Origin: Cantharellus purpuraceus
Taxonomy: Eukaryota > Basidiomycota > Agaricomycetes > Cantharellales > Hydnaceae
DNA: 64,000 nucleotides
Assembly: GCA_025174535.1 (NCBI GenBank)
Contig: JALBUN010000033.1
Coordinates: forward strand, 31,327 to 95,326
Direction: 5' to 3'
The position numbers and the translations under genes are program-made. Below, piece by piece: positions 15,954-35,600 of this stretch. The notes under the pieces are model-generated. The model saw only the letters and a program-made list of their open reading frames with translations, had not been told where the DNA came from and ran no database searches. How positions within the stretch are numbered: the first letter of the stretch is position 1; each line of letters opens with the position of its first letter.

Positions 15954-18900
15954 TTATACATTGCGTTTCCTTTTCCCCTTCCCCTTATCTACCTCAGGCT
16001 CCATCTCTGACTCATCATCACTCTCTACATCTGACACCCAATCTTTCTCATCCCCCATGTCCGAATCCTTGTCCAAAGGGGCCATGACCTTCCGCAGCTG
16101 ATGTAACTTGGCCGTTGGCTGACCCTCCAGAACCTCCTTCCATTTCATTGTCTTCACCAAGTCCACTAGTAACCCCTCCGTCCACCGGAGGTGCTCCGAC
16201 TGCAGGTTAACCAGCCAGATAAGCTGGCCCACAGTACTGTTGGGCGCAGAGACGCGCCCTGTACCTGTACTGGTCGTTGCCCCTTCCGATCCGACACTGC
16301 TACCCCCAGCTGCCACAGCACCCATCTCCATCTGCTGCTTTTTGGTCGGACAACCTTCTGTTTCTTTCTCCTCCTTGTACCACTAGTCGGGGCTTGACGC
16401 TCTGACTCTGGGGATTGAACTTTCCATCGATCCTACACCCTCCTTTCCAACCCTGACAATGATCACAAGACCGAAGGCGGCGAGTTGGGCCGGTAGGCCA
16501 CACACACTCCACGCCTGCATCATGACACAAGTCACAAGTTATGCCGGGCCTGCCAAATGGCTCTGCTGGAGCCAGAGCCTTGGGTGGTCTGCCCCTTCTC
16601 GCTGCGGCCTCCAAGTGTTCCCTCTCCTCCTCCTTGTCCTGCTGTTCTGCTGCCACCTTCTCCATCTCGCACTTGTGAAGCTGGATCGCCGACCTAGCAA
16701 CATGCAGCTCCTGTATGGGAACCACCTTTTCCCTATCAAATTCCATTTATGCAGCACCAATGTGCTATTCTTTGCTTTTCCATTCCTAAATATCAGCATA
16801 TATTTGATGCTTGTACCTGGAAAGAACTTATTCAAATATTCTCTATTTTTCCATATTTTTTCGGGAATATTCCATGCAGAACTCGGCTCAGAATCATTTA
16901 TTTCTGCTGTGCTACAGTTGTGGACCCATAGGCGCCCACAAACCTTCGCACAGCCGCCTCTCCCCTTTTGGACCAGGCATTTGGCCTGAATTCAAGCTCA
17001 GATGTCTCTGATCAATAAATATTCTCTAACTTAACAACCACAGCCTCTCAGGGCACTATTTTCCGTGGAGATCATCACATGACATGTGGCTATCCATGGC
17101 TGTCCAAACCAGTGCAGAAAACAGGGTGGACACCCTTCTTTTTGCCTGATCAGTGCCTAGTTCAGGGATCAGATCAGCTGATGGGTGATCAAATCAGGTG
17201 ATTGCCTTGGAATATTCTACCCCTTTCCATAACATTCTAGCTGTTTCCCTCTATTATTAGATAGAACTTTCCAGAACCATTATTCAGCTCCTGATCAGTG
17301 TTAGTGCTGTGATCAGATCCTGTGATTGGCTTGGAATATTCTACCCCATTCTTCCACCTTCCACAACCTTCCAGTAGTTTCCATCTATTAATAGGTAGAA
17401 TATTCCAGAAGCATTAGTCAGCCCCTGTAAATACAATATATAAGGAGGCCATTCTGCCTCTGAAAGAATAACATATCATCACATTCTACCCATCTTCTGC
17501 ACACCAGTGTGACTAGAGTGACATACAGTGTCATCCTCTATCTCAGTAACTGTTGATTACCAGTTCAAGGATCTTTTACAGTTGTGTAACTGTACTTGAT
17601 TGCACTCGAAGTAGTGATATTCCTGCTTTGGGCATGAGTGTAGTATCTGCCTCACGTGACTACGAATCTACAGGGTGAGATTGTCTGTCGATAGTCCTGC
17701 CATTAGTGCTCTTGTTTAAGTTACTAGTGTGTACTGCCTTTGCAGAGCATTAGAAGCTTGAACTCGTGTGAAGCAGTTGCTAGACTACTTCACACATCAC
17801 TGTTACCCGCTTCTGAGTGCCACTGGTTGGACGGTTGGATTCATCCACCTACTTCCTTTAGCCTCTAAGTGCATTCCCATCTTTTTGGAATATCTGGACC
17901 CCTAAGCGTCCGTGAACTCTAGACTCTGGAAGTCTTATTCATTTCTTGCTGCTAAGAAACGTATTACCTTTCTGCGTATAGTCTGCATTGACCAATACAA
18001 AGGATTGTAACCAAAGTACAAACGTTAAATCGTTTCTGGAGTTGTGCTGCAGCAGGGTTTGATATTCTTCTCAGCTGTTCATTCACGGAATTGTGGTGAT
18101 TTAGAGTTTGCCCTAACACCATAATTTTGCGGGTTCCAAAACAGCTCCTTCTTACGGGTTGCACCATATGACCCTCCGATCCACCTCCCACTTCTCCGTA
18201 TCAGCACTCAGGTATGCCTTCAATGAAAAGACCACGACGTTGAGATTCTTCTTGGTGGTAGCAGCATAGAGCTCTGCTCTTTTACGAGCCTCGACCATGG
18301 CTACCCAAGCCATCTCCTCATAACAATTCGAAGTTGGATCCGGCTCCGCATCTGTCCTGACATCCACAACCACCTTGGGCTCCACATTTGCATTGAGCTC
18401 CATATTGGCATCAGGATCCACCTCCACCTCTGCCCTCTCTGCCTCTGCCGCTTCATCTTCCTCAGCCACACCCAACCCAAATAATGGCCATGCCCACAGA
18501 CATAATGGCGAGTCCACCACAGTGACAGTTGTTGGATGAGTTGTTTCCATCCACGTAACGGAGATGATGGCAACCTTGGGGCTGCCTGTCTGTATTGGCA
18601 CACTTGGACTTCCTGGGTGGCTGGTTGCCCCTGCCCCGGTCTCCTCCTCCTCTACCTCCATGGCAGCTTCTAGCTCATGCGCCTGCTCCTCCACTTCCTT
18701 CAGTCTCATGGCCTCCATTGTGGCTGCAAGTTCCTTGACCCTGTGGGCTCTCTCAGCCTTCGCTTCCTCCTCTTTCCTTCTCCATTCTGTCTCTGCTGCC
18801 TCTTTCCGTCTCCGCTCCTCCTCCTCCTTCCATCTCCATTCCACCTCCTCCTCCTTCCATCTCCATTCTGCCTCCTCCTCCTCCTTCCGTCTCCGTTCTG

Positions 18901-19009
18901 CTTCCTCCTCCTCTTTCCATCTCCGCTCCTCTTCCTCTTCCTTCCATTGGGCCAAGAGCAACTGCTCAAGCTCAGCCATGCTCATGCTTGCAAAAGGGTT
19001 TGACATCAT
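15954..19009 (-). pseudogene. Antisense Zn2Cys6/AT-hook-like gene of Gypsy-D, copy 2, split by LTR C
   Basis: The minus-strand frame starts at 19009 (MMSNPFASMSMAELEQLLLAQ). It runs through a long Glu/Lys/Arg coiled-coil, then LKEVEEQAHELEAAMEVEEE, an acidic region and RAELYAATTKKNL. A solo LTR C (16712-18143) interrupts it at ELHVA. After the LTR come AEQQDKEEEREH, an AT-hook (RRGRPPK) and the cluster CDLCHDAGVEC, 12 residues, CDHCQGWKGGC. This spacing matches the fungal Zn2Cys6 pattern C-x2-C-x6-C-x5-12-C-x2-C-x6-8-C. A frameshift near 16330 separates the acidic tail ending GKGKRKRNV (15954). The protein is inferred to be nuclear and DNA-binding; its role is unknown. A TATATAAAAGG box on the minus strand near 19040 precedes the start. 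Confidence 0.82.
16712..18143 (+). repeat. Solo LTR C inside the antisense gene
   Basis: This 1432-bp LTR starts TGTATGGGAACC and ends GGTTCCAAAACA. It has a perfect 5-bp duplication, GCTCC, at 16707-16711 and 18144-18148. Copy 3 of the host gene (near 31742-31750) shows the empty site with one copy of this sequence. A TATATAAGGAGG box lies near 17438. Long LTRs ending in CA with 5-bp duplications fit Ty3/gypsy or copia, and I cannot assign the parent element. Confidence 0.95.
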
Positions 19010-19147
19010 TGAGGATAAGACCTCAATCATGCCCCTCCTTTTATATGTCTCCAGACCCCCAATATAACTCCAACTGTGCCCAACCATCTCACCTATTCAA
19101 TCCACAGACATGAGGCCTCAGGGGCTCAGCCTTAAATGGAGAGATAC

Positions 19148-19684
19148 TGTTATAACTATATTCATTAACACCCAGATCCCCATCTGATCTACTCAGATCC
19201 CTGTGCACATGAAATCTATACTCCATTTGGAAACCACCATGTCTCCATCTACCTGTCCAATTGTCACCGCTGATTCTGCCCATCCATCTCCAGTTCCAAT
19301 ATGCATCAGCATCACCATAGGAACCTGGACATCTGTCCCCATTGGACTTGGACATACTCATGTAAGGCCATCGGCCTTGGAGACCCATCACCAGAGTAAT
19401 TATTATTAGATTTCAAATATGTATTTAAGTTGCCCGACTGGGGACTTCATTCCCCAGTTTGAATATCGAATCACACCTAGTTCCTAAGTCTGATCCCAAC
19501 TCTCTAAGTCGTACTCCATCTCCAAAATCTCAGACACCGGTATTAGTGAGGGTGCAGCACATAAGCTGAAGCCAAGTCCGTTCCAACCCCCACAATGTAA
19601 CCAACTCCTTCTCCAACTCTGACCAAACCTCTGACCAAAACTCCAACCCAATCTCCAACCCCCAATCAGACCTAGTGCGTAACA
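19148..19684 (+). repeat. LTR G, 3' LTR of Gypsy-D copy 2
   Basis: It is a full 537-bp LTR from TGTTATAACTAT to GTGCGTAACA, preceded by the GAGATAC purine tract. Its right neighbour is the continuation of copia B RT (QPEGF), so this end marks where Gypsy-D copy 2 entered copia B. The flanks at 10165-10169 (TGTGT region) and 19685-19689 (TGCAT) do not form a clear duplication. Confidence 0.9.
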
Positions 19685-20774
19685 TGCATCAACCTGAAGG
19701 CTTCATCATCAAAGGGAATGAAAACTCTGTTTGCAAACTAAATAAAGGTGTCTACAGCCTCAAACAGTCTGGATGTGTGTGGCATCAAATGCTCAAATCC
19801 AAACTAGAGAAGCTTGGATTCAAATCCAGGCTAGCCAATGAAATGGTTTTCTTTCAATCACAGGGACCAGGGAATATTGAGATTGCCAGTTGGTATGTAG
19901 ATGATGGATTGCTGGCAACATGTACAAAAGAATCAATGGACAAACTCATTGGAGAGATCAGTAGTTTCTTTGAAATCCAAGATTTGGGTGAGCTGACATG
20001 TCTATTGGGCATTAAAATCTACAGAGATTGAACCAATGGATCCATTCACATTTCCCAACCTGCTTTCATTCATAACATCGTGAAACACTTCAAAATTTCC
20101 TCTGAAAAATCTATTAATAATCCAATGGATACATCACACAATCTCAGAAAGTCTACAGACTTGAATGATGAATTAATGTCCCCTATGCCTCACTTATTGG
20201 TTCAATTAATTACTGTTCAGTATCGACTTGACCAGACATTGCGTACACTATGAATTGATGTACCCAATTCACATCTCTTCCCATGGTCAAGCATTGGGAG
20301 GCCATCAAGAGAATTGGACTCACAGATGCAGACTTCACTGGTGATGTAAATGATCAAAAGTCCATGACCAGCTGGATCTTCACATATAACAATGCTCTGC
20401 TCTCATGGGCTTTGAAGAAACAGACTTGTGTTGCCAGATCTTCTATGGAGTCAGAATTGATTGCAGGATTGTTTGCATCTGCAGAAGGAATATGGTTGAA
20501 TAAACTGGGAGCAGATTTTACACTTCCATTCATTCCAATTCCAGTGTTCACTGATAATCAATCATCCATTGCATATGTGAATAATGATATCAGTAACACT
20601 CGTACAAAACACATCAACATACACTATCACTATACTCATGATCAGATTGTGAACAGAAACATTATCCTTCATTATATTCCTACATGTGACAACCCTGCCG
20701 ACATACTTATGAAGCCATTATCTCCATGCAAGCATCAGCATCTACTCAAGCTTCTTGGTATATGCTGTGCTTGA
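19685..20774 (+). pseudogene. Copia B pol, RT and RNase H continuation
   Basis: The RT resumes with HQPEGFIIKGNENSVCKLNKG, VYSLKQSGCVWHQ and an intact active site, WYVDDGLLAT (about 19887-19920). A stop at 20029-20031 and frameshifts near 20175 and 20290 follow. RNase H is at 20283-20774: TDADFTGDVNDQKS, SSMESELIAG, FTDNQSS, TRTKHINIHYHY, then the PADILMKPLSP tail and LLKLLGICCA before the stop. The purine tract GAGGGGGC and then LTR J follow directly. Confidence 0.92.
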
Positions 20775-20781
20775 GGGGGCA

Positions 20782-21591
20782 TGTCAAGAATTTACTTGAG
20801 AATTATCATGACTTACTGGAGTAAGAGGGAAGAGATGTATGATAAGAGAAAGGTGTGAAAAGATTAGGGATTCTGGTTAAGGGATGGGGAGGAGGTCATT
20901 TTTGATTTTATTCTGTGAGCCCTCCTTTCATTCTACAGGGGCGGTTACTACTCAAAAAGGGAGATATCATGATGACATTCATTCATCATAAATCTCAAGT
21001 TAAACAGGTGAAAATTCACTTCTCTGTAAAAGGTTTTTCTTTTATGACATCACATATTACAATTATTCTCTGTATCATTTATTTCTTCATTGGTTTCACA
21101 TCATTTATGACTCATTTTCCATGTAATTATTAAAACATATATTATGTGTATAGCTACATACCATAATCACATTGGATTCACTGATTTTAATCCCTTCCAA
21201 GCTGCAAACAAACAGCTTGTATCAATTTTCTGTCATTTCTGGAATAACTCCTATAGACTTATTCAATCTCAAATCCTTTGCATATACAATTAGAATATTG
21301 CACCATCTAGTTCTATCTCAAATTATGAACAATTTGGACCATTGGGTCCATTTCTATTAAGCAAACACTTTCTTGAAGTGTTGCTGTTCCCTATTTCTGC
21401 TTAAATATTTCACAGAACATCCAGTTCTTAACCGAATCACCTGAAATTTGGTGACAACATCCTACTTGAATATATATAACATACGACTGCACATACATCC
21501 TCTGCACCCCAATAATACTCCTATTTGATTTCTACTCAGCATTCACCCCCTGCCTTACACATATCACACTCCTCCTTATTTTCACCTAACA
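20782..21591 (+). repeat. LTR J, 3' LTR of copia B
   Basis: It starts TGTCAAGAATTTAC immediately after the RNase H stop and the purine tract, and ends TTCACCTAACA. At 21592 reversed LTR C resumes, so the 3' end of copia B sits inside an LTR C. Only this copy is in the window, so the boundaries rest on the TG..CA rule and on the neighbours. Confidence 0.75.
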
Positions 21592-21999
21592 ATAAGACTT
21601 CCAGAGTCTAGAGTTCATGATGCTTAGGGGCCCAGATATTTTAAAAAGAGGGGAATGCATTTAGAGGCTAGAGGAAGGAGGTGGATGAATTTGATTGTCC
21701 AACCAGTGACACTCTGAAGTGGGTAACAACAGTGTGTGAAGTAGTCTAGCAACTGCTTCACATGAGTTCAAGTTTCTAATGCTCTGCAAAGGCAGTACAC
21801 ACTAGTTACTTAAACAAGAGCACTATGGCAGGACTATTGACAGACAATCTCACCCTGTAGATTTGTATTCACATGAGGCAGATACTACACTCACACCCAA
21901 CGCGGGGCAATCACTACTTCAAGTGCAATCAAGTACAACTGTAAGTGACCCTTGAACTGGACAATCAACAGTTACTGAGAAATAGAGGATGACAATGTA
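21592..21999 (-). repeat. LTR C fragment, reverse orientation
   Basis: This is the reverse complement of the 3' half of LTR C (compare 17530-17945). It keeps the uninterrupted stretch TGAAGTGGGTAAC (near 21715), which shows the site before copia A inserted at 2103/2104 and 41463/41464. It is bounded left by LTR J and right by LTR F. Confidence 0.85.
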
Positions 22000-22196
22000 T
22001 GTATTTGTAGATACCTAGACAGGTAATCTACAGTCCAAGATAAGTGTGCATATTAAACACAACTGAGGGAGGGTGACAGCTGTGACCCACTTATATAAGG
22101 GCACAGCTGCAGAAATGGATTATACCAAATGTAATAATAAAGTGATTAGCATTGGTGGGTTACCATGTGGATCAGCTTAGGATCCACATTCCAACA
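22000..22196 (-). repeat. Short LTR F, 3' LTR of copia F
   Basis: On the minus strand it reads TGTTGGAATGTGG to CTACAAATACA, 197 bp, preceded by the purine tract GAGGGAGAG. It is inserted in reversed LTR C. A second purine tract with TGTTG lies 58 bp further in (22253), so the exact start could be either. Confidence 0.65.
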
Positions 22197-22286
22197 CTCT
22201 CCCTCACTCTGGTAATTGTTAAATAGCATAGCATTTGGGATATACATCAACACTCTCCCTCACTGGGATGCCAGTATGCACAACAG

Positions 22287-22812
22287 TGTTGAGAAATATG
22301 CTCATCCACTGATCATCCAACTTAGATTCCATACTGCTGGATCATATCCAACCTCTGGATCTTGTCAATACATGTCAATATCCACAAGATCATGCTATAA
22401 TACACTCCCCAAGTTCCATCTGATCACCAGTCACAAGATACAGTCAGGTTACTGTTGCACACATGAATAACCATCTGTATAACCAAAGTCATCAGATACA
22501 TTTAGGAGTATGAATGAATATGCCAAGTCTTATTTCTAGTTTACTTGTAAAACACCTGACTCTCATTTCCAATTCCTGTCACATTTGTACCTCTCTGTTC
22601 ACAAATGACTCACAAACACAGTCTATTTTTTTGGTTTATCTTTGTTCATGTGTCCCTCATAACTCATGTATGTTCCAGATGCCAAGACTACTCTCAGATC
22701 TATAAGTACATGTACTACCAATATGCAAATCCCTAGGGAAAATCAAGTTGTATATTTCCTCATTGATTTACTGCTTGTATTGTCTACTACTCATCTACTT
22801 AATCTTACAACA
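22287..22812 (+). repeat. LTR A copy within the 3' end of copia F
   Basis: It runs 526 bp from TGTTGAGAAATATGC to ATCTTACAACA. It splits the last codons of copia F, which read LGLHST on one side and CAYWHP on the other. The flanks AACAG and GTTGG do not show a clean duplication. Confidence 0.82.
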
Positions 22813-23980
22813 GTTGGTTGAGTGCAGGCCTAGCATTTGGGTGAATTTCTCATTTTTGGATGAGGCAAAGCCTTTGTCATAATGTCTGCTGGCATCTTGG
22901 AGGTAGGAATATAGTGGAAGGAGTGTCTTTATTCTCCACACATTTGCATGTATAGTGGAATTGGACATCTATATGTTTGGAGCAAGCATGAAATGTGGTG
23001 TCTTTCATGAGGGTGATGGAACCTGAATTGTCACTGTACATAGTTGATGTGGCTTGTTTGTGACCTAGAAGCTCAAGTAAGTGACATAACCATATTGCTT
23101 CCTTTGTCACATGACAACTGGCAATGTACTCCACCTCACAGGTTGATGTTGTGACAATGGGTTGTCATTTTGACCAAGATATCAATCCACATCCCAAGGT
23201 GAAAGCATAGCTGAAGTGGAGTGGTGGCTGTCAATATAGCTGGCGTAGTTGGAATTTGTGTAACTGGTGAGAATTGGTGCTTTCTTTCCTCCAAGGACAA
23301 GTATGTGATTTCATGTTTGCCTTAAGTAGCAAAGGACATGTTGTAGTGCTGTCCAGTGTGCCTGGCCAGGGTTGGAGTTGTATTGACTGAGTTTATTTGT
23401 AGCAAAAGTAATATTTGGGTTGAGTTGCCAACAATGTGTACATCAAGGACCCCATGCCAGCAAGATATGGTATGTTTTTCATCTCCTTCTCTTTTTCAGA
23501 TGTGAGTGACATTTTCTTAGATAGGATTACATTGGAATCAAGTGGAGTTGAAACGCCATAGCTGTCTTGCATGTGGAAGTGCTGGAGGATTGTATCAATG
23601 AAAGCTCCTTGAGAAAGAGCAATTGTCTTTGCAACATGATTGCATGTCACTGCCATGCTGAGGAACCAGCAGATGTCCCCCATATCAACTATGTTGATTA
23701 TTTTCCTGAGGCTGTCATGTGTCTGTTTCATGGTTTTACTGTCACTAGTTGCAACCACCATGTCGTTGACATGGATTGTGACCATAGCCTTGCCTGAGTG
23801 ATCATGTTTTATGAAGATGCTGTGGTTGACACTCACTCATGTGAACCCCACTTTTTGCATTTCCTCACACAGTCTTTCATACCAGCATCATCCAGCCTGC
23901 CTCAAACCATAGAGAGATTTATGCAGCTTGCATACCCAGCCTTCCTTACCCTTTTCTTTGTGCCCATCTGGTTGCTCCAT

Positions 23981-24545
23981 GACGCTTGTTCGGAATCATG
24001 TCAGTATACAATATTCTGATGTATAGGAGATATACATCAGGATTTCAATGATACATAAAGCCAGGGAGTTACAATTTGGATATCTTAAAAGATTTTGGAT
24101 GTGTGAAATTTTCATAAATATAACCATATATTCTATATTTTAATAAACTTTAAAAGATAAGATATTTGGTTGAGATGAACATAACTGTTTATATGAATAT
24201 AATAGGAATGTCTGTATTAATATAATTAGTATTATATAGGGTATTTAGATATACAAATACCAGGTGGGAATTAAAGATAGTTCAAATTATGTTACAAGTA
24301 TTGTATAAGAAAGAATCAATGATATTTGGATGTTCCTTCAAGAGAGTTGCCACCACTAAATAGGGAAAAAACAATTATTTTTGAGAATTATGCCAAAATA
24401 TCACAATATGTTTTAATCTAGTATATTGTGTAAAATTTGAGAATCATGTTGAAATATGAAAATAAGTTTGAATTGAAGTGTATTGTATAAAATTTGAGGA
24501 AAATAGGTTGTATATATGTATTTGTTGTATTTCTGAACAAGCGTC
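23981..24545 (+). mobile_element. MITE-like TIR element, copy 3
   Basis: This is 565 bp, starting GACGCTTGTTCGGAA; the reverse complement of its end is GACGCTTGTTCAGAA, so the 15-bp TIRs differ at one base. CAT flanks both sides (23978-23980 and 24546-24548). It is inserted in copia F RT. It has no coding capacity. Confidence 0.9.
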
Positions 24546-24609
24546 CATGTAGATTTCCTCAGTGAGATTTCCATGAAGAAAAGTTGTTTTGACATCAAAC
24601 TGATGTATT

Positions 24610-24948
24610 TGTCAGGGTTCATCTGACTCAGTTTCTATTTTTAGTACCTTTCTTATTGCCCCTATCAGCACAGCCTGTTAGGGTGCGCTCTCCTATCTCT
24701 CCCCTATTGTTCCCCTATCTTGGTTCCCCTATTCCTTGTGTCATCTAGTATAAAGACCTTGCCTGGTGCAGCACAGTTTCCTCAGCTTGATCTCTGAGGA
24801 TATCTGCTGTACCAGGTGAGTCCCATATTCACCAGTGACAAGTGTATAGACTGAGGATATCTGCTGTACCAGCTGGCATTATCTCTTATCAGCTCTCATC
24901 TATTGAGTATCTTGTTGTTGTGGCCTTGTCATTCAGCATAGCCCTCAC
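24610..24948 (+). repeat. Solo LTR I in copia F
   Basis: A 339-bp LTR running from TGTCAGGGTTCA to AGCCCTCACA has a perfect duplication GTATT on each side (24605-24609 and 24949-24953). A 20-bp motif (GAGGATATCTGCTGTACCAG) is repeated within it at about 24798 and 24853. A second copy lies in reverse in LTR A at 41006-41367. Confidence 0.93.
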
Positions 24949-25762
24949 AGTATTTCCCAGTCAAGTGATGCTGTGAGTCCAAGGACAGTGTGGACAGACT
25001 CTAACCTGGCCACAGGAGTGAATGTGTCCATATAGTCTACTCCTTCAATTTGGGAATACCCTTTTGCTACTACACATACCTTCCACCTTGAGACCATGTT
25101 ATTCTCATCCCTTTTTTGGAAGAATATGGCTCTACTTCCAATTATTCAGTGGCCTTTGGGAACAGTGGATCAGAGGACTAGAGTCCAGACACCATGGCAT
25201 TGAAGTGAGTTCATTCCACCACCATAACCCCTGTCCCAGCACAGTGCACCATAGGCCTCAGTGGCTTCTTTGTAAGTATGGGGATCATCATCTGCAACCC
25301 CCAATAGGTCATCAGTTTCTTTGTCTGGAGCCACTTGGAGATTGTCAGTGAGAGAATGCATTTGTTCAAGGTGATTTATCTGCTGCTCTGCTTGTTTGCT
25401 GATCTGGCACTTAGTCTGTTCGAGGATGGATTTGTGAGGAATTCCCTGCATCGCTGCACGTGCTGCAGATAACGTCTTGGGTCTGGTTGATCAGCATGGT
25501 GAGCTTGTATGCAGTTCATCAGGAGCATTGTATTCAGTAGTATGTTCCTCATCTCCCTGTTGAGATCTGATACTTTATTAGTTGGACTCAATGTATGATG
25601 CCTGAGCATGTCCAGCTGTTCATCTATTTTGGGATCATCCTGTGTGTTCTGAATCTTCACACCAGGGCAGTAAGGTTGTATCCTGGCAATGAATGAAACA
25701 TCTTACAACACTATGATATGTCCTGTGGGAGGATAATTGTTAATGGGTGTCTTAGTTCACAC

Positions 25763-26013
25763 TGTTGCACAGAACTCAACCAAGTGTATTGGTTGGGTGA
25801 TGTGCTGTACAGTGTGATAGTTACTAAGTTCTTTTTTTTACTACATGTGGACCCACATGTGTACTTGGGTCCACTGGATTACATAATAACTATACATATG
25901 CACCCTATGGGTGCATATATCTATCAAGAAGACAGCATTCCTTAATGGAATGCTGCATACATTAATTATTACTATCTAGCTATATACTATAGTAAGTACC
26001 TTGGGTACTTACA
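25763..26013 (-). repeat. LTR-like terminus of element H
   Basis: On the minus strand the sequence AAAAAAGGGAGGG, which resembles a polypurine tract, is followed by TGTAAGTACCC and, 251 bp on, by TGTGCAACA. This is a TG..CA unit in the position of a 3' LTR. A 48-bp piece of the same terminus (GCACAGAACTCAACCAAG) recurs at 30194-30241. No second full LTR is in the window, because LTR B cuts the other side at 28203. The LTR assignment is therefore an inference. Confidence 0.5.
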
Positions 26014-28009
26014 CCCTCCCTTTTTTGAATGAGGCATGATCTCATTCAGTACCTTTTAATCATACAGCTCCTTATGAAGCTGTTCTGACAAGTTGGTGTC
26101 CATATGGTCATCTTGTTCATATGGCTCTGGAGGGGGATGGCTCTCAGTCATTCCTGACATGGTTGCAGTATCCTCATCCACTTGAATGGATGAGGAGGAT
26201 GCAATTGCTACTGCAGCATCCCGATCAAGTTCACAATTAAATTAATTGTGACCTAAATGCTCAGCAAGAGAGCATTTAGCAGCTTTATGAGCTGCTTGGG
26301 AGACTCCCTGAGTCTCCTGCTTTATCCTGCTTTCACTTACCAACCCTAGTGGGCTGGTTAAATGCTGCTCTAGAGGCGATGTGTTTAGCAAACTCCTCTA
26401 ATATAGCAGCACAATCAGAGGTGATGCCTCCCGATTGTCCAAACCAGAGCACAAGCTCTAATTCAGTATGTTCTTTGGGGAGCAATTCCCCCAATCATAT
26501 GCTCCAGTGACTGAAGTGCGAAAGGTGTCACCAAGAGTTGGTGACAACTTTTGGCCACTGGTCAATAATCCCCAGTGGCTGGGATTCTGGAACATAGTCC
26601 AGAGGTTCTTCTTAAATACAGAAGAACCCTTCTTGAGAGTGGCCTTTTGTAGCCACATCCAGATGTCCACATCGGACAGGTTCATAGTACCATCCTACTC
26701 CTGTCAGATGGCCAGGGGGACCCCATTAGGGTTTACTTGCCACCCCTGTATGAGAGCAAGTGTGTCTACTGGTGTGGTCAGTAGAGTGATGATAAGACTC
26801 ATGTTATCAGCGTGAGCCAGTAGAGTCATTCTCTTGATGACTCTGCACATTGGTACAGTCCGTTCTATGAACGGCATGGCCAATGCCTTTTTATGGAGTG
26901 ATACAAACTCCAGAGTGTCCATATCACAGATGTCAAACCAGTCTGCCCTGATAGGGGCAGACTTGCCCAGAGGTCATGGCAGGTGGCCAGTGACTGCTCT
27001 GGAGGGGTCAGCTGCAGTCATGAACCATGGTGCCCATTTGGGGAATGATTTCCCCACATTGGCATGCTTGAGAGCATGCCCAAAATCATCCCAGTGTTTG
27101 CAATAATTCATATGCTGGGCTTCCTCCAGCGTCTTCAACACTGGGTCTTTTAAGGTACAGCTGGCATCACCAGCCATATATTCCTTTCAAAGCTGATCAA
27201 TCTCAGCTTTGGTTTCTGATAGGGCAAACTCTTTGAATTTTCCCAGTTGCTTAGCACCCTTGGGGATGCTAGCCAGGAGGAGGCCACGATTGTGGTTGTA
27301 TTCCTCCCTGATTGGGTTGGTGTCGTCCCAATCTTGACCCTCAGACCCTTGAGGATCGATCCAAGGCAATTTGCTCAGGCAATCGTCCTCTTTGGTAAGA
27401 TCAATCATTTCCTGTGATGATGAAGCCATGGGCTGTAATGGCATAATGGCAGGCAATGATTTGCCTGCCATAGCACACGATAGCAATGCTACTGGAGCCA
27501 AGTGCACTGTTGTGAGCTTGGTCTTAAATGTAGGAGGTGCTCTATTAGCAGCCTCCTTCAGTGTTTTTAACTTGTCTCTGAGACAAGTTACTTTGGACTT
27601 CTCATTGTTAAGAAGCCCTTCAAGTTCTTGGACCTGTGCAAACAGGTCTGAGTTATCCTTGTACATCTTATTGTAGTCTTCATGATAAGGTGTCATCTTC
27701 AATGTCGTGTATAAGTTGTGGCCATGTGACTCTTAATGCGCTTTCCACTGAAGCAGTGGAATGATATAGTCGGCCTCCATTTTGGGCCTCAATTAAGTGC
27801 AACACATATGCATTGCACTTGTTGCACCTGTGAGGGTGATGGATGGCAGCACCACCATGCCATCTGTCAATTTTCCAGGTCATCTCATCTTGATGACCCC
27901 TGATCATATCTGCAGCACTCAGTACCAGTGCTGCTGCTGTGGAAGTTTGTTCAACTTCCATTGGATGCTCATCCTGAGCATCCATCATCTCCCTTCTGAG
28001 AGATGACAT
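26014..28009 (-). pseudogene. Decayed ORF of element H, unknown product
   Basis: The minus-strand frame starts at 28009 (MSSLRREMMDAQDEH). It shifts frame near 27700 and then stays in one frame down to about 26030, with some eight in-frame stops, for a total of about 650 codons. Visible traits are a possible metal-binding stretch HRCNKCNAYVLH, then a short coiled-coil (LFAQVQELEGLLNNEKSKV, LRDKLKTLK). A conserved-looking middle follows (WFDICDMDTLEFVSLHKKAL, GWQVNPNGVP, LSDVDIWMWLQKA). I do not recognise the family, and no RT, integrase or transposase motif is present. If the element is an LTR element it is non-autonomous. Both arms of many hairpins fall inside codons. Confidence 0.6.
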
Positions 28010-28202
28010 TTTGATGGGGGGGTTGTGGTGGTTTGAAGAAACACTGCTAGCTTTTTATGGCTGAGCTTGAAAATTCTTTATTGAGAATTTTTCCAGTGAC
28101 TATGTCACATGGGTGTAACATGATTAATTATCACTTACCCCTTTCATGCTACTATGAGTAGCATGATGGTGAACTGCTCCCATAGGGAGCAGTTTTTCTA
28201 CC

Positions 28203-28803
28203 TGTTAAGTGCTGGGATGCTCAGAGTTCAAAAGGAATAACCGGAGTTAGGCTGCTAGTAAAAGAGAGGGGTGGGACTTTACTGTTCCAGTTCAACTGGA
28301 GACAGTGTGGGAGCAATACTATTGAGTTGGATCGAGTGGACTTGGCTTCAACTTGTGTGTTGCGCCCCCTCAGATCATTGGTCCAATATTTCAGAGTTCA
28401 GAGTACAGAGTTGGATCAAGGATCTGGAGTTCAACTTATCAGGAAGGTACTTGACAAGAAGCTAGCAATCAAGAAGTTGATGGGGCAAATCTTAGTCGAT
28501 ATATGAACTACTGTAATAGACAGAGAGTAGCCCATATAAGTATATGGAGAATTGAATGCTAGAACTAAAACAAGAAAACAATAAGACAGATATGGAGTAC
28601 AACACGGAAAGGAGTTCAGAGTTTGGACCCAAGTCCAAACTATACTAGCAATATAAAAGAAGAGGTTTGTTGTACCCCATAAGAAGAAACTACTTATGGA
28701 GAACAAGAAAAGGAGTTTGGAGTTGATGGAGGTGGAGTAGGAAGATGGAGATGGAGTTGGAGATGGAGTCTGGAGATCAGACTTGATGTTACAGGATGTA
28801 ACA
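28203..28803 (-). repeat. LTR B, reverse
   Basis: This is the reverse complement of LTR B, from TGTTAAGTGCTGG to GGATGTAACA, 601 bp. Flanks CTACC and ATCCA do not match. It truncates the upstream side of element H on one side and abuts gypsy-B internal sequence on the other. Confidence 0.87.
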
Positions 28804-28867
28804 ATCCACTGCGCTACTGCCCTCCTCACAATTGTGTTTCCATCAAGGAGGAGCACTCCCTTTTACC

Positions 28868-29278
28868 TCACATTTCAGCCAGTTTGTCTGGCATGTGAGG
28901 CAAGAGCAAGATTTCCTGGTCTAGGAAACAAAAGTAATAATCAGTAGGATATCCTGACATCCAGTCACTATGTTCACTCACTGTTGCCCACTTGCACACG
29001 TCATCATGCTTGATGCATGTATTGCATATGAGGTCCAATTCAGATTCTTCATCCAGATCCTTATCCACCTCCTTGCCTTTTGCAACTACCCTCGATAATG
29101 CCCTTTTCTTTGTGGCCTCCACCCTGACTTGAGCCACCTCAGCAGCCCTCTTGCAATCTGCTACCTCCCTTGCAATCCTCTTCTCCTCCTCCACCTTCTT
29201 CTTCTCTGCAGCATCAGCCTCAGCAATCAACTTATCCAATGTGGCGCATTGCTGATGAAGTTCTTTGGCAGAGGGCAT
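28868..29278 (-). CDS. Antisense coiled-coil/CxxC ORF of the gypsy-B element
   Basis: This 136-codon minus-strand ORF (the frame is open upstream to 29359) starts best at MPSAKELHQQC. It has a charged coiled-coil of about 70 residues (AEADAAEKKKVEEEKRIAREV, then VRVEATKKRALSRVVAK). An acidic patch (DKDLDEESELD) follows, then CNTCIKHDDVCKW, a C-x2-C-x6-C half of a Zn2Cys6-like cluster. The second Cys half is not seen before the stop. It lies between lost pol sequence and LTR B (29423), which is preceded by AGGGAGATAC. That position and orientation match the antisense gene of Gypsy-D. It looks like a truncated relative, though the evidence for homology is architectural. Confidence 0.6.
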   Translation of the reverse strand: MPSAKELHQQCATLDKLIAEADAAEKKKVEEEKRIAREVADCKRAAEVAQVRVEATKKRALSRVVAKGKEVDKDLDEESELDLICNTCIKHDDVCKWATVSEHSDWMSGYPTDYYFCFLDQEILLLPHMPDKLAEM

Positions 29279-29422
29279 GTCAGATGGTGGTAAGAGATAA
29301 GGAGAGAGGTAACATGCATTTAATAATTTGGCCAGCCTCATGTGCCAATTCAAATGCATATACCACCAATTTTCCCATGATGCTGACTAAGATCTTGTGG
29401 ACTCAATCTAGAAGGGAGATAC

Positions 29423-29994
29423 TATTACATTCTGTAACACCAAGTCCAAACTCTGGATCTCCATCTCCATCAACTCCACCTCTGTCAACTCCACCTTCGT
29501 CAACCCCAAACTCCATTATTGTTCTCTTTATAAGTAGTTTCTTCTTATGGGTTACAACAAACCTCCTTCTTTTATATTGTTTAGTTTTAGTTCAGACTTG
29601 GGTCCAAACTCCAAACTCCTTTCCGTGTTATACTCCATCTTATTGTTTTATTGTTTTAGCTTCAGCATTCAATTCTCCACATACTTATATGGGCTACTCT
29701 CTGTCTATTACAGTAGTTTGTATATTGACTAAGATTTGCCCCATCAACTTCTTGATTGCTAGCTTCTTGTCAAGTACCTTCTTGACAAGTTGAACTCCAG
29801 ATCCTTGATCCAACTCTGTACTCTGAACTCCAAAATATTGGACCAATGAAGCCAAGTCCACTTGATCTGACTCAATGGTTATTGTCCCCACTCTGTCTCC
29901 AGTTGAACTGGAACAGTAAAGTCCCCTCCCTTTCACCACTAGCAGCCAAACTCCGGTTATTCCCTTTGACCCCCGAGTTTTCCAGCCCTTAACA
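29423..29994 (+). repeat. LTR B, 3' LTR of gypsy-B fragment
   Basis: It starts TATTACATTCTGTAACA (TG decayed to TA) right after the purine tract AGGGAGATAC, and ends CCCTTAACA, 572 bp. Its right end joins the interior of an LTR G, so gypsy-B inserted into a Gypsy-D LTR. Confidence 0.87.
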
Positions 29995-30193
29995 CCTAGC
30001 TCCTAAGTCTGATCCAAACTATCTAAGTTGTACTCCATCTCCAAAATCTCAGACACAGGTACTAGTGAGGGCGCAGCACATAAGCTGAAGCCAAGTCCAT
30101 TCTGACCCCCATGATGCACCTCAATCCCCACTCCAATTCCAATGCCAAACTCCAATCCCGGTTCTGACCCCCAATCAGACATAGTGTGTAACA
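29995..30193 (+). repeat. LTR G fragment, forward
   Basis: This is the 3' 199 bp of LTR G (CCTAGCTCCTAAGTC to GTGTGTAACA), truncated on the left by LTR B. It faces the minus-strand LTR G of copy 3 across a 48-bp spacer (30194-30241) derived from the terminus of element H. Confidence 0.85.
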
Positions 30194-30241
30194 CCAGCAC
30201 AGAACTCAACCAAGATATATTGGTTGGGCAATGTGATATAT

Positions 30242-30757
30242 TGTTACGCACTAGGTCCAATTGGGGGTCGGAGATTGGGTCGGAGGTCGGGTCAGAGTCA
30301 GAGCACATCATGGGGGTCGGAACGGACTTGGCTTCAGCTTATGTGCTGCACCCTCACTAATACCGGTGTCTGAGATTTCGGAGACGGAGTACGACTTAGA
30401 GAGTTAGGATCGGACTGAGGAACTAGGCGTGATTCGATATTCAAGCTGGGGAATGAAGTCCCCAGTCAGCAACTTAAATACATATTTTGAAATCTAATAA
30501 TAATTACTCCGGTGATGGGTCTCCAAGGCCGATGGCCTTACATGAGTATGTCCAAGTCCAATGGGGACAGATGTCCAGGTTCCTATGGTGATGCTGATGC
30601 ATCAATTGGAACTGGAGACGGATGGGCGGGATCGATGGTGACAATCGGACAGGTAGATGGAGACGTGGTGGTTTCCAAATGGAGTATAGATTTCATGTGT
30701 GTGGGGATCTGAGGGGATCAGATGGGAATCTGGGTGTTAATGAATATAGTCATAACA
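30242..30757 (-). repeat. LTR G, 3' LTR of Gypsy-D copy 3
   Basis: On the minus strand this runs from TGTTATGACTAT to GTGCGTAACA, 516 bp, with the GAGATAC tract just inside (30758-30765 on the plus strand as GTATCTC). It is rich in CpG compared with copies 1 and 2, suggesting it is the youngest. Confidence 0.9.
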
Positions 30758-30859
30758 GTATCTCTCCATTTAAGGCCAAGCCCCTGAGGCCTCATGTCCA
30801 TGGATTGAATAGGTGAGACGGTTGGGTGCAGTCGGAGTTATACTGGGGATCTGGAGACA

Positions 30860-30867
30860 TATAAAAG
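30860..30867 (+). promoter_or_regulatory. TATA box of the antisense gene, copy 3
   Basis: TATAAAAG lies about 30 bp upstream of the ATG at 30896. The same ACATATAAAAGGAGGGGC context precedes the antisense gene in copy 1 (minus, near 7615) and copy 2 (minus, near 19040). The box is outside the LTR, in the stretch between LTR and ORF, so the gene appears to have its own promoter. Confidence 0.6.
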
Positions 30868-30895
30868 GAGGGGCATGATTGAGGTCTTATTCCCA

Positions 30896-32501
30896 ATGAT
30901 GTCAAACCCTTTGGCAAGCATGAGCGTGGCTGAGCTTGAGCAGTTGCTCTTGGCCCAACGGAAGGAAGAGGAAGAGGAGCAGAAACGGAAAGAGGAGGAG
31001 GAAGCAGAACAGAGACGGAAGGAGGAGGAGGCGGAATGGAGACGGAAGGAGGAGGAGCAGAACAGAGACGGAAGGAGGAGGAGGAGACGAGAAGGAAAGA
31101 GGAGGAAGTGAAGGCCGAGAGAGCCCACAGGGTCAGGGAATTTGCGGCCGCGATGGAGGCCGCAAGACTGAAGGAAGTGGAGGAGCAGGTGCATGAGCTA
31201 GAAGCTGCCATGGAGGTAGAGGAGGAGGTGACTGGGGCAGGGGGAACCAGCCACCCAGGAAGTCTGAGTGTGCCAGTATGGACAGGGACCCCTGAAGTCA
31301 CCATCATCTCCGTTACACGGATGGAGACAGCTCGTCTGAAAACTGTCACAGCGGAGGTCTCGCCATTACATCCGCGGGCACAGCCATTGTTTGGGTTGGG
31401 GGCAGCTGAGGAAGATGAAGTGATGGAGATGGAGAGGGCGGAGGTGGAGGCAGATCCTGATGCCAATATGGAGCTCGATGCAAATGCGGAACCCAAGGCA
31501 GGTGTGGATGTCGGGATGGATGCAGAGCCAGATCCGACTTCAAATTGTTATGAGATGGCTTGGGTAGCTGCAGTTGAGGCTTGCAAAAGAGCAGAGCTCT
31601 ATGCTGCTACCACTAAGAAGAATCTCGATGTCGCGGTCTTTTCATTGAAGGCGTACCCAAGTGCTGATACGGAGAAGCGGGAGGCGGATCGGAGGGTCAT
31701 ATGGTGCAAGGCGGAGAGTCACGTGTTGGCAACCCATAAGAAGGAGCTGCATGTCACGAAGTCGGCGATCCAGCTTCGCAAGTGCGAGATGGAGAAGGCG
31801 GCAGCAGAACAGCAGGACAAGGAGGAGGAGAGGGAACACTTGGAGGCCACAGCGAGAAGGGGCAGACCACCCAAGGCTCTGGCTCCAGCAGAGCCATTTG
31901 GCAGGCCTGGCGTAACTTGTGACTTGTGTCATGATGTGGGCGTGGAGTGCGTGTGGCCTACCGGCCCAACTTGCCGCCTTCCTGTGATCATTGTCGGGGT
32001 CGGAAAGGAGGGTGTAGGATCGGTGGAAAGTTCGATCCCTGGAGTCGGAGCGTCAAGCCCCGACTAGTGGTACAAGGAGGGGCAGAGAAAGAATCGGAAG
32101 GTTGTCCGACCAAAAAGCGGCGGACGGAGACAGGTGCTGTGGCAGCTGGGGGTAGCGGTGTCGGATCGGAAGGGGCAACAACCGGTACAGGCACGGGGCG
32201 CGTCTCTGCACCCAATAGTACTGTGGGCCAGCTTATCTGGCTGGTCAACCTTCAGTCAGAGCACCTCCAGCGGATGGAGGGGTTGCTAGTGGACTTGGTG
32301 AAGATGATGAAACGGAAGGAGGTTCTGGAGGGTCAGTGGACGGCTGAGTTACATTGGTTGCGGAAGTTCATGGCCCCTTTGGATGAGGATTCGGACATGG
32401 GGGATGAGAAAGATTGGGTGTCAGATGTAGGGAGTGATGATGAGTCGGAGACGGAGCCTGAGGTAGATAAGGGGAAGGGGAAAAGGAAACGCAATGTATA
32501 A
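30896..32501 (+). pseudogene. Antisense Zn2Cys6/AT-hook-like gene of Gypsy-D, copy 3 (best preserved)
   Basis: It is encoded opposite to the gypsy pol. The start MMSNPLASMSVAELEQLLLAQ leads into a Glu/Lys/Arg coiled-coil. A frameshift near 31080 moves the reading to a frame open from about 31080 to 32067. That part holds LKEVEEQVHELEAAMEVEEE, an acidic segment, RAELYAATTKKNLDVAVFSLKAY, a second helical stretch (AEQQDKEEEREH), an AT-hook RRGRPPK (about 31855-31875) and CDLCHDVGVEC. Another shift near 31975 leads to CDHCRGRKGGC, completing a Zn2Cys6 pattern with a 12-residue linker. A hydrophobic helix (VGQLIWLVNLQSEHL), an acidic tail and the basic end GKGKRKRNV (possible nuclear signal) close it. 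The family is unknown to me; a DNA-binding role is inferred. Confidence 0.83.
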
Positions 32502-32656
32502 AAATAAAAAATGAAAATGATTATAAATTTCAGAGCGGAGAAAAATGAGTCAGAGTGATATTCCTTCAGAGTTTTTTGGGCAGGCTGGTAATTTCCCTTG
32601 TGACTTGTAATAAAATGATGATGCAAAATAATAGAATTAGCATTAGTAATCGAACT

Positions 32657-35600
32657 TAAAGATTCATAAGGGGGCCAGGTTTGTCTGGATAAGCGGAGTG
32701 AAAGTCAGAGACAGATTTGGATGCGTGATCGAGTTCAGACGTGGATATCCATGAGGACTCTTTGTCAGTGCCTTCATATCCAGTCCATTTGACTAAGTAC
32801 TGGAGCTTGCACTTGTGTCAACGGTTGATCTTTGAGTCCAGGATCTCAGATATCTCATATTCATTATCTCCTTCGATGATGATTGGGGGAGGTGGAGGTT
32901 GCATGCGACCAGAGATCTTGTTCGTAGTAGTGGGTTCGAGCATTGATATATGGAAAACCGGATGAACTGCTTGGAAGTGGTCAGGGAGGTGGAGGGTGAA
33001 GGACCTGCTGCCTGCATGAGCAATGACCTCATAAGGACCTAAGTATCTCTTGGAGAGTTTCTTTGATGGACGGGTGGTCCAGAAATGTTCAGCCTTAATG
33101 AATACTTTGTCTCCGATTTGCAGGTCCGGAGCCGGAATGCGGCATTGGTCTGCAGAGACTTGATATTGTTTCTAGGCATCAGAGATGGTTTCTCAGAGAT
33201 GTTGGTGTAGTTGATCGAGGTCAGTTACGAATTGGCAAGCTTTGGTGGAGGCAAGTTCTTTCTCAGGGTGGACAGAGATGTTCGGATGATAGCCTTTATT
33301 AGCAAAGAACAGAGAGACACCAGTGGTTGCATTCAGAGTGTTGTTGTAGGCAAACTCTGCTATCGGAAGTAGGTCAGCCCAGTTGATAGTTACAATAGAT
33401 TCGGAGATATTGTTCCAGGGACTGATTCATTCATTCCGTTTGTCCATCTCCTTCTGGATGGTATCCGGAGGTGAAGTGAAGTTTCATGTCGAGAGCCTTT
33501 CCTAGTGTGCGGAAGAAGGAGGACATGAACTCTGAGCCCCAATTGGATGTGACATGCAATGGGACTCCATGTTTAGAGAATACGTGGAGAACGAACAACT
33601 TAGCTAGTGAGGCAGAGGTGATGGTGTCATGCGTCAGAATGAATAGTGACTGTTTAGTGAACCTGTCAACAATCATGAGTATGGTGTCGTATCCAAGTGA
33701 TGGGGAGAGCTTCTCTATGAAATCCATGGAGATGGAGTTCCATGGTTGCTCCGGGACTGGAAGTTGCTCAAGCATTCTGTAGGGTTTGTGCCTTTGCAAT
33801 TTTGAGCGCATAGACATGGTGCAGGAGTTACAGTAGTGTTGAATGTATTCTCACATTTTAGGCCATATGTAGTCTCGTTGGATTAATCCTTGTGTGCGAT
33901 TTTGCCCGAAATGGCCCGAGATTGGGTGATCATGATAATACTGCAAAACTCGGAATCAGAGGCTGTTGGTGTCGGGGACGTATATCCGGTTGTTGTGTCA
34001 GAGGTGTCCTTTGGGGTCAAGTGACCATTTCAGATCGGAAGGGTTGTCCAAGTGTTTAACTGTAACAGGATCAGATTGGAGTGATGAGCAGATGTTGGAG
34101 CAGAGTTGGTCAATGTCCATAATGGTGACAGCTCGGAGGGTGGGAGTCATGAGGGTGGATGCTTGTAGGGATGATGCCAGCTGCTTGTTAGTAAACACAG
34201 GATGAAAGTTCTGTGGGTTTACAGTGGCATAGTCGCTATTCCCCTCTTTAGGGTAGATGTCCCATTGTCTAGTTAAAGCGTCGGGCTTTGCTCTGAGTCG
34301 ACCAGGACAGAAATGGATAATGAGATTGAACTGAGATAGGTATTCGGACCATCGGGCTTGTCTCCAGGTGAGCAGTTTCATTGTGGAGAAGTATTCCAAG
34401 TTCTTGTGGTCAGTTATGACATCCACTGGATTGGAGGGGCCTTCAAGGTAGTGTCTCCATATCCAGAAGGCTTCATATATGGCAAGGAGCTCTTTGTCAT
34501 GGACATCATAGTTCAGTTTGGGGGGCGTAAATGTACGCGAGTGAAAAGCGATCGGATGGACTTGTCCATCATCTCTCCAGATGATGGACAAGATCGTGGC
34601 AAGTGCATAGTTGGAGGCGTCAGTCTCTAATAGGATAGGAATGTCTGGAACCCAATGAGTCAGTATCAGAGCGGAAGTAAAGGCCTTTTTCAAGGTCTCA
34701 AAGCTCTGTCTACATTTGTCAGTGAAATTCCATTGGATACCCTTCCTAGTGAGTCAGGTGAGCGGAACGGTGATATCGGAGTAGCCATGAATGAAGCGGC
34801 AGTAGAAGTTGGTGAACCCTAGGAAGGACTGTACATCCTTGACTTTCTGAGGTTCCAGCCATTCCTGTATGGCTTTGATTTTGTCATCGGACATTGTCAA
34901 TCCTGCCGGGGAGAGGATATAGCCTAGGTATTCGACCGAGTCAGAGTGGAATTTGCATTTGTCAGTGCGGGCAAAGAGGCCATGCTTTCGGAGACGTCAG
35001 AGTACTTCTCGGACATGTGTCCAATGTTCTTCTTTGTTGTCCAAATATACCAGAATGTCGTCTAAGTAAACGAGGACAGTCACATCGAGGAGGTCGGTGA
35101 AGGTATCATTCATGAACCTCTGGAAGGCGGCTGGAGCATTGGTTAGTCCAAAGGGCATGACGCACCACTCGAAAGATCCATATCATGTGCGGAAGGTCAT
35201 TTTCCATTCGTCGCCTTCTTGGATGCAGACTGGATGGTAGGCATGTCGGAGATCTATTTTGGAATAGATCTTAGCCTTTCGAGGACTTTCGAGTAGGTCT
35301 GCGGTGCAGGGTATTGGGTATCGGTCTTTCTTGGTGATCTTGTTGAGTCCATGGAAGTCGACGCATAGACGGAGTGATCCGTCCTTTTTGCAGACAAATA
35401 GGACCAGAGCTCCATGGGGAGATAGGGATGGGTGGATGAAGCCTGTGGCCAAGTTCTTGTCTATGAATGTTCGGAGAGCCAGTAGCTCTTTTTGGGATAG
35501 CAAGTAGATAGGGCCAAGCGGAGGGGTGGAGTTGTCATCCAGTTCAATCTTGAGATCGTATGGTCAGTGTTCTGCTAGGGAGTCAGCTTTAGACTTGCTG

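What the first reader, a model, noticed from the sequence alone, without database searches (positions are those of the whole stretch)
25757..28200. A 2.4-kb element tiled with dozens of perfect short palindromes
Seen directly: at least 26 perfect inverted repeats with arms of 8-11 bp and spacers of 1-10 nt, about one every 90 bp, plus many 5-7 bp ones. Several are nested (27090-27098/27137-27145 encloses 27114-27118/27126-27130). Random expectation for 8-bp arms at these spacers in this length is about 0.4. They cover the LTR-like end, a frame of about 650 codons and its leader, so coding alone does not explain them. Possible causes are selection for a structured RNA (packaging, protection or small-RNA production) or repeated hairpin-templated copying during replication that perfects imperfect palindromes. 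I know of no described element family with this property, and it is the best candidate here for something new.
Basis: seen in the sequence. Interest (0 to 1): 0.92.

Follow-up and report, generated by a model that had tools for sequence, protein, structure and literature searches.

The report
Jumping gene tiled with perfect hairpins
A fungal jumping gene (an LTR retrotransposon) carries a perfect short hairpin roughly every 90 letters through its coding and non-coding parts; the pattern is real, was seen in one element family only in the sequence examined, and looks Watson-Crick copied or selected on both strands, which may expose an unusual habit of how the element copies itself.

Summary
In detail: 27 perfect inverted repeats (arms 8 bp or more) in 25739-28202 against 0.57 in dinucleotide shuffles. 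The stretch is the truncated 3' end of a Ty3/gypsy-type LTR retrotransposon on the minus strand, found at 40 places in this 40-Mb genome (a lower bound). Other copies show the tiling running through integrase, RT and gag-side parts. Five loci of related families (43-48% RT identity) have 0-4 such repeats in 3-3.8 kb each. Helices are Watson-Crick perfect with little sense G-U preference, fold equally on both strands, have short spacers and a span near 23 nt, and show no detectable protein cost. Apparent covariation between copies is CpG decay. Some loops are inverted; in one LTR hairpin 42 of 189 LTRs, at similar rates in two flanking haplotypes and not more often in decayed copies. I favour hairpin-templated strand switching during the element's replication, filtered by selection on its proteins (0.42), over selection for hairpins on both strands (0.33). 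Cause unproven; new variant of a known kind.

The parts
25738..26013 (-). 3' LTR (TG...CA, 276 bp), itself carrying hairpins at 25777-25795, 25847-25874, 25896-25918, 25933-25955 and 25992-26012
   Evidence: left boundary from the copies that reach it; a unit of this length lies alone in the opposite orientation in L010 with a 5-bp target duplication AACTC; hairpins
26014..26026 (-). polypurine tract next to the 3' LTR
   Evidence: read directly from the sequence; function inferred from position
26056..28009 (-). broken remnant of a third ORF (about 650 codons) lying after integrase, of unknown function; start and stop placed by eye
   Evidence: broken frames; 10 homologues, all JGI metagenome proteins; no Pfam family over its cut-off in the two pieces scanned
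25738..28202 (.). truncated element copy; 34 non-overlapping helices with arms of 7 bp or more by a column tally over 20 copies
   Evidence: the copy stops at 28202 where other copies run on towards integrase
27446..27471 (.). example: perfect hairpin with arms of 11 bp and spacer 4, inside the ORF
25896..25918 (.). LTR hairpin (arms 10, loop 3) whose loop is inverted in 42 of 189 matched LTRs of the genome
28172..28194 (.). hairpin (arms 10, loop 3) whose loop in the window copy is the inverse of the commonest state; 4 of 58 matched genome copies are inverted
27962..27984 (.). coding hairpin (arms 10, loop 3); 2 of 80 matched genome copies carry an inverted loop

Best explanation
The element is a Ty3/gypsy-type LTR retrotransposon whose replication habitually switches template at short fold-backs. 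When the nascent strand folds on itself, or pairs with the complementary strand, over a near-palindrome of about 19-27 nt, one arm is copied from the other, so the arms become perfectly Watson-Crick complementary; when the switch runs through the loop on the complementary strand, the loop comes out inverted. Over many cycles this perfects local palindromes everywhere, and selection on the proteins keeps the outcomes that leave the amino acids acceptable. After insertion the copies simply decay, largely at CpG. Shown: tiling over the parts examined, perfection, locality, sharp ends, a constrained span, strand symmetry, loop inversions that do not increase with copy decay, restriction to one family in the sequence examined. 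Inferred: that the switching happens during reverse transcription, and that it made the palindromes rather than only acting on them.
For: Watson-Crick perfection: in 3bp-X-3bp windows X is a WC pair 180 times (plus 11 in CpG columns) against 6.0 by shuffle, sense G-U 9 against 1.7, sense A-C 8 against 3.2, other 12 against 10. Sharp ends: one step beyond the first outer mismatch pairing is random (18 WC of 68). Spacers up to 13, then background. Span (2 x arm + loop) has sd 3.31 against 3.87 permuted, p=0.0012; arm and loop correlate negatively (rho -0.27, p=0.006). Both strands fold equally (mean z of four pieces -3.6 to -4.0 sense, -3.6 to -3.8 antisense, paired p=0.52, 57 windows). Loop inversions: 10 of 2658 loop-copies are exactly or nearly the reverse complement of the commonest loop, against 4 of 5155 for reverse-only or complement-only; with arms of 8 or more and loops of 2-4, 7 of 207 in 5 hairpins. 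One LTR hairpin: 147 LTRs against 42 inverted; 13 of 47 and 16 of 62 inverted in two haplotypes that differ 16 bp away; 13 of 47, 21 of 86 and 8 of 56 at 0, 1 and 2 mismatches, so inversion does not grow with decay (my counts from the listed rows, the two-mismatch class partly by subtraction). Shared non-CpG variants: 9 in 685 stem columns against 55 in 1403 others. Related families lack comparable tiling. Arm homogenization plus spacer inversion is the published signature of template switching between inverted-repeat arms (PMC8604942, first of seven parts read).
Against: No clear case of an arm rewritten in one copy: private changes at mismatched flanks made a WC pair 24 of 42 times, 19.0 expected. 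No 5'/3' arm bias against relatives, though small samples hinted at one. Stem codons agree with relatives at least as well as others, whereas rewriting should cost residues. Arms stay at 12 bp or less in the four non-coding pieces too, and stem ends in coding could be extended synonymously about as often as control pairs (16 of 52 against 325 of 890, p=0.46), which an open-ended ratchet would not leave. In one LTR hairpin with a 5-nt loop none of the 100 listed of 187 matches was inverted. Two apparent same-strand LTR pairs about 600 bp apart are discordant in loop state, as later flips in the host genome would also give. CpG-decayed arms show almost no coupling (344 compensated, 308 not; control 2306, 2199), so no repair between arms is visible after insertion.
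Confidence: 0.42

Rival explanations
1. Selection for local hairpins on both strands: the element gains if both its RNA and the complementary strand (antisense RNA or cDNA) fold into short hairpins, for example because this slows annealing to double-stranded RNA and so hides it from RNA interference. WC-only pairs are needed because a G-U pair on one strand is an A-C mismatch on the other.
For: WC perfection and equal folding of both strands; no detectable protein cost, so realised largely through synonymous choice; arms of moderate length in coding and non-coding parts, as if a hairpin of 8-10 bp suffices; loops closed by 5'C-G3' 31 times against 10 G-C, a physical hairpin preference that reads the same on both strands. 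Precedent for the principle: RNA replicating with Q-beta replicase evolves structure with less dsRNA formation (PMC6913131, abstract and outline seen).
Against: Related families in the same genome, presumably under the same host defences, show nothing comparable. Arm and loop lengths correlate negatively, whereas a stability requirement would pair longer loops with longer arms. Does not by itself explain the loop inversions.
Confidence: 0.33
2. Selection for a structured sense RNA (packaging signals, stability or dimer contacts in the genomic RNA).
For: Strong sense folding (z -4.5 against -0.6 to 0.05 in four controls); sense loops A-rich (0.394 against 0.32 in the whole pieces); sense G-U is slightly more in excess over shuffle than A-C (9 against 1.7, 8 against 3.2).
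Against: Sense G-U pairs are still few beside 180 WC pairs and hardly commoner than A-C mismatches; the antisense folds as well; the loops show no obvious shared motif, the most enriched trinucleotide being TTT, 12 against 4.3 (judged by eye); pairing is local only.
Confidence: 0.12
3. Ordinary host DNA template switching at inserted copies, not linked to the element.
For: Known in yeast genes (PMC8604942 first part read; PMC3820800 passages seen); discordant apparent LTR pairs.
Against: Other sequence examined, related families included, is near background; the aligned copies share the same hairpins; inversion does not rise with decay; almost no arm coupling at decayed CpG.
Confidence: 0.04

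Closest known systems
Ty3/gypsy LTR retrotransposons (Tf2-1-like integrase C-terminus)
   Same: LTRs TG...CA, 5-bp target duplication at a solo LTR, polypurine tract, RT before integrase, RVT_1 and SH3_Tf2-1 matches; protease, RNase H and gag pieces named by eye only
   Different: tiling with perfect local hairpins over the parts examined; an extra ORF after integrase; chromodomain not detected by Pfam in the one piece scanned; primer site not identified
Quasi-palindrome template switching (yeast; PMC8604942 first part read, PMC3820800 passages seen)
   Same: perfect short inverted repeats with arms of 7-11 and short spacers, spacer inversions, recurrent events
   Different: there scattered events in host genes; here about a hundred helices over pieces of one element family, and no individual arm-rewriting event was caught
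Genome-wide RNA structure in RNA viruses and Ty gRNAs (Ty3: PMC11381356, passages seen)
   Same: structure along the whole element; folding energy well below shuffles
   Different: here mainly local hairpins, WC-perfect and strand-symmetric; the Ty3 passages I saw mention palindromes only as a few short candidates for dimer sites
Hairpin-loop microinversions (chloroplast, birds; PMC6444266 and PMC3123225 seen in a search listing only)
   Same: small loop flips between inverted arms, homoplastic (the mechanism in plastids partly recalled)
   Different: there in scattered natural hairpins; here in a retrotransposon family

Membership tests
Ty3/gypsy LTR retrotransposon | LTRs with TG...CA ends and short target duplication | tested here: met
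   276-bp LTR; solo LTR in L010 flanked by AACTC, empty site in L012 and L024. Against: L021, with two LTRs, shows no target duplication.
Ty3/gypsy LTR retrotransposon | RT domain | tested here: met
   RVT_1 38.5 bits, cut-off 29.6, on a 150-aa piece
Ty3/gypsy LTR retrotransposon | integrase after RT/RNase H | tested here: met
   order of pieces in broken frames (RNase H by eye); SH3_Tf2-1 2.2e-14; integrase relatives with PF17921 and PF00665
Ty3/gypsy LTR retrotransposon | polypurine tract and primer binding site | tested here: inconclusive
   polypurine run beside the 3' LTR; the sequence after the 5' LTR lacks the usual TGG start, read by eye
Chromovirus | chromodomain at the integrase C-terminus | tested here: inconclusive
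   no chromodomain match at E<=1 in the one 255-aa piece scanned; a resemblance by eye only
Template switching between inverted-repeat arms | perfect (homogenized) arms | tested here: met
Template switching between inverted-repeat arms | spacer inversion | tested here: met
   none seen for one 5-nt loop in the 100 listed of 187
Template switching between inverted-repeat arms | a copy in which an arm was rewritten from its partner | tested here: inconclusive
   24 of 42 against 19.0 expected; no arm bias
Selected sense-RNA structure | compensatory changes with G-U intermediates on the RNA strand | tested here: inconclusive
   no complementary double change outside CpG columns among 20 copies (low power); fixed sense G-U 9 against 1.7 by shuffle, A-C 8 against 3.2; no amino-acid covariation in relatives
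Selected sense-RNA structure | folding below shuffled controls | tested here: met
   equally met by the antisense strand

The most novel reading that the evidence does not exclude
A lineage of LTR retrotransposons copies itself with a hairpin-templated switching habit strong enough to have rewritten its genome, coding and non-coding, into perfect local palindromes of about 23 nt at no detectable cost to its proteins, so the genome carries a record of how its cDNA strands fold and jump.
Probability: 0.38. Interest if true: 0.92.

Novelty: new variant of a known kind. Interest (0 to 1): 0.78.

Why it matters
Template switching by reverse transcriptases is known (from general knowledge) mainly as occasional error and recombination. 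An element saturated with its apparent products would let one measure where, on which strand and over what span the switch occurs, and how much of a genome such a process can rewrite under protein constraint. If selection is the cause instead, it would be a protein-coding element written so that both strands fold, a possible shield against double-stranded RNA. Either way it warns that covariation between transposon copies can be CpG decay: here 84 of 85 double changes looked compensatory before masking.

Tried and rejected
Covariation between copies as proof of structure: rejected, it was CpG decay. A 77-81% copy in L012 as a separate lineage: it looks like an older copy with the same stems. 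Stem codons more conserved against near relatives (0.68 against 0.56): confounded by other gypsy loci among the hits; at matched positions (20 copies with enough shared codons, one of them without stem codons) the mean difference is +0.08, +0.07 and +0.10 for three sets of relatives and rarely significant. Amino-acid covariation of arms in up to 120 RT and 120 integrase relatives: none clear. G-T excess on the window plus strand at stem edges: partly composition, not used. DNA of relatives: viral contigs twice without a relative; genome contigs gave one distant contig, filed under a lichen cyanobacterium MAG, with 3 repeats of arm 8 or more in 5.25 kb. Rfam on 20000-34000: no match. Ten paper searches: among the rows listed I saw no hairpin-tiled LTR element; the library holds open-licence papers only, and I opened five papers (PMC6911290, PMC3820800 and PMC11381356 passages, PMC8604942 first part, PMC6913131 outline).

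Full report
Check. In 25739-28202 there are 27 perfect inverted repeats with arms of 8 bp or more and spacers of 0-10; the other 61.5 kb of the window hold 22. Sixty dinucleotide-preserving shuffles of the stretch give 0.57 +/- 0.72, maximum 3 (spacers to 12). Codon-preserving shuffles of nine coding pieces give means of 0.28-0.92 for arms of 7 or more where 3-11 are observed; seven of the nine exceed every shuffle, the integrase pieces of L010 and L012 do not.

Identity. A search of the window's own genome (40.15 Mb, 50 contigs) with 26500-27500 gave 42 matches at 40 places, the window included, nearly all 87-92% identical; only 40 of 182 candidates were scored, so this is a lower bound. The left boundary is that of a 276-bp LTR with TG...CA ends; an oppositely oriented solo LTR in L010 is flanked by AACTC, and L012 and L024 show the empty site. 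The window copy ends at 28202, where an element with inverted arms begins; other copies run on. On the minus strand their broken frames encode RT and integrase pieces (RVT_1 38.5 bits, cut-off 29.6; SH3_Tf2-1 2.2e-14; no chromodomain match); protease, RNase H and gag pieces I named by eye. L021 has two LTRs in the same orientation spanning 5.9 kb end to end, with a similarly tiled gag-side region (9.1 helices per kb), but no target duplication. So this is a Ty3/gypsy-type LTR retrotransposon, and the finding covers its 3' end.

Extent. Over the window and 28 fetched loci, sequence matching the element has 7.0 such repeats per kb and the rest 0.79 per kb; the element library included some flanking repeats and the rest included unrecognised element parts, so the true contrast is probably larger. 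Loci of related families at 43-48% RT identity have 1, 1, 4, 0 and 3 in 3.0-3.8 kb each (L037, L038, L041, L042, L043; spacers to 13); with spacers to 12, one search gave 0 and 0 for the first two, which look like one family. L040, fetched as a possible diverged relative, proved to be this family and is tiled (11 in 2.8 kb). Mean folding z of 150-nt windows is -4.5 for the window copy and -0.6 to 0.05 in four controls.

Anatomy. Four pieces from different copies, together 8.8 kb, hold 101 non-overlapping helices with arms of 7 or more. Arms are 7-11; spacers mostly lie at 1-13 and then fall to background. Span is usually 19-27 nt; its spread is smaller than when arms and loops are re-paired at random (3.31 against 3.87, p=0.0012). 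One pair beyond the first outer mismatch is WC 18 of 68 times. Between 3-bp flanks the middle pair is WC 180 times (6.0 by shuffle), sense G-U 9 (1.7), sense A-C 8 (3.2), other 12 (10); with 3-bp inner and 4-bp outer flanks G-U 8 (0.6), A-C 6 (0.5). Sense and antisense fold alike (p=0.52, 57 windows). Closing pairs are 5'C-G3' 31 times, G-C 10 times; sense loops are A-rich.

Proteins. Stem codons match relatives at least as well as non-stem codons; a larger contrast was confounded. In coding pieces the first mismatch beyond a stem could be turned into a pair by a synonymous change in 16 of 52 cases, control 325 of 890, so stems have not been stretched as far as the proteins allow; arms in four non-coding pieces reach 12 against 11 in coding, and hairpins are denser there (13.9-24.8 against 12.2 per kb).

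Copies. Double changes in stems look compensatory (84 of 85), but shared variants are mostly CpG transitions; without CpG-suspect columns no complementary double change remains. In CpG pairs within stems, compensated and mismatched double decay are nearly equal (344, 308), as in controls (2306, 2199): the arms decay almost independently after insertion. Shared non-CpG variants, which I take to date from the active lineage, are rare in stems (9 in 685 columns) compared with elsewhere (55 in 1403), so stems were kept or corrected while the element was active. Stems were defined from the same alignment, which biases this contrast somewhat.

Loop inversions. In 10 of 2658 loop-copies the loop is exactly or nearly the reverse complement of the commonest state; two of the ten come from one duplicated locus; reverse-only and complement-only controls gave 4 of 5155. 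Seven lie in hairpins with arms of 8 or more and loops of 2-4 (7 of 207; 5 hairpins). Genome-wide, one LTR hairpin has 147 LTRs with the common loop and 42 with the inverted one (up to two mismatches; segmental duplicates not removed). In two haplotypes differing 16 bp away the inverted share is 13 of 47 and 16 of 62, and by mismatch class 13 of 47, 21 of 86 and 8 of 56: recurrent, and not accumulating with decay. Other hairpins: 4 of 58 inverted, 2 of 80 in coding, 1 against 11 of which 8 have the exact common loop, and none in the 100 listed of 187 for a 5-nt loop. Two apparent LTR pairs about 600 bp apart, same strand, are discordant (a third such pair is a duplicate of one of them) and two pairs are concordant, so some flips may be late.

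Judgement. Perfection with little wobble, locality, sharp ends, constrained span, strand symmetry, restriction to one family in the sequence examined and loop inversions fit hairpin-templated strand switching in the element's replication. The lack of protein cost, the unmaximised stems, and the absence of arm bias and of any caught rewriting event fit selection for hairpins on both strands better. I put the first at 0.42 and the second at 0.33. The span near 23 nt might reflect the geometry of reverse transcriptase and RNase H; that is a guess from general knowledge, not a result.

Noticed in passing
window 28203-29995: A separate element with inverted arms (28203-28804 and 29459-29994) abuts the truncated copy and recurs in other loci.
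   Followed up: no
L026 oriented coordinates just right of 6252; L018 oriented about 6180-6560: The non-coding spacer between integrase and the third ORF holds an array of hairpins sharing one stem theme (AGCTACC...GGTAGCT), as if one hairpin had been multiplied.
   Followed up: partly
G000 contigs C5, C10, C49: LTR matches only about 430-620 bp apart in the same orientation suggest miniature derivatives (LTR, short internal part, LTR).
   Followed up: no
aligned copies; RVT_1 hits: Many CpG sites have decayed to TG or CA in the copies, and many listed RT frames carry in-frame TGA, pointing to methylation-driven decay of repeats in this fungus.
   Followed up: partly
window 32700-36500 and 18000-21000: Other retrotransposon remnants there (gypsy and copia by eye) have 2 and 1 repeats with arms of 8 or more.
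   Followed up: partly
L021 5' LTR junction (oriented about 9390): The sequence after the 5' LTR lacks the usual TGG start of a tRNA primer site; self-priming or an unusual primer is possible.
   Followed up: no
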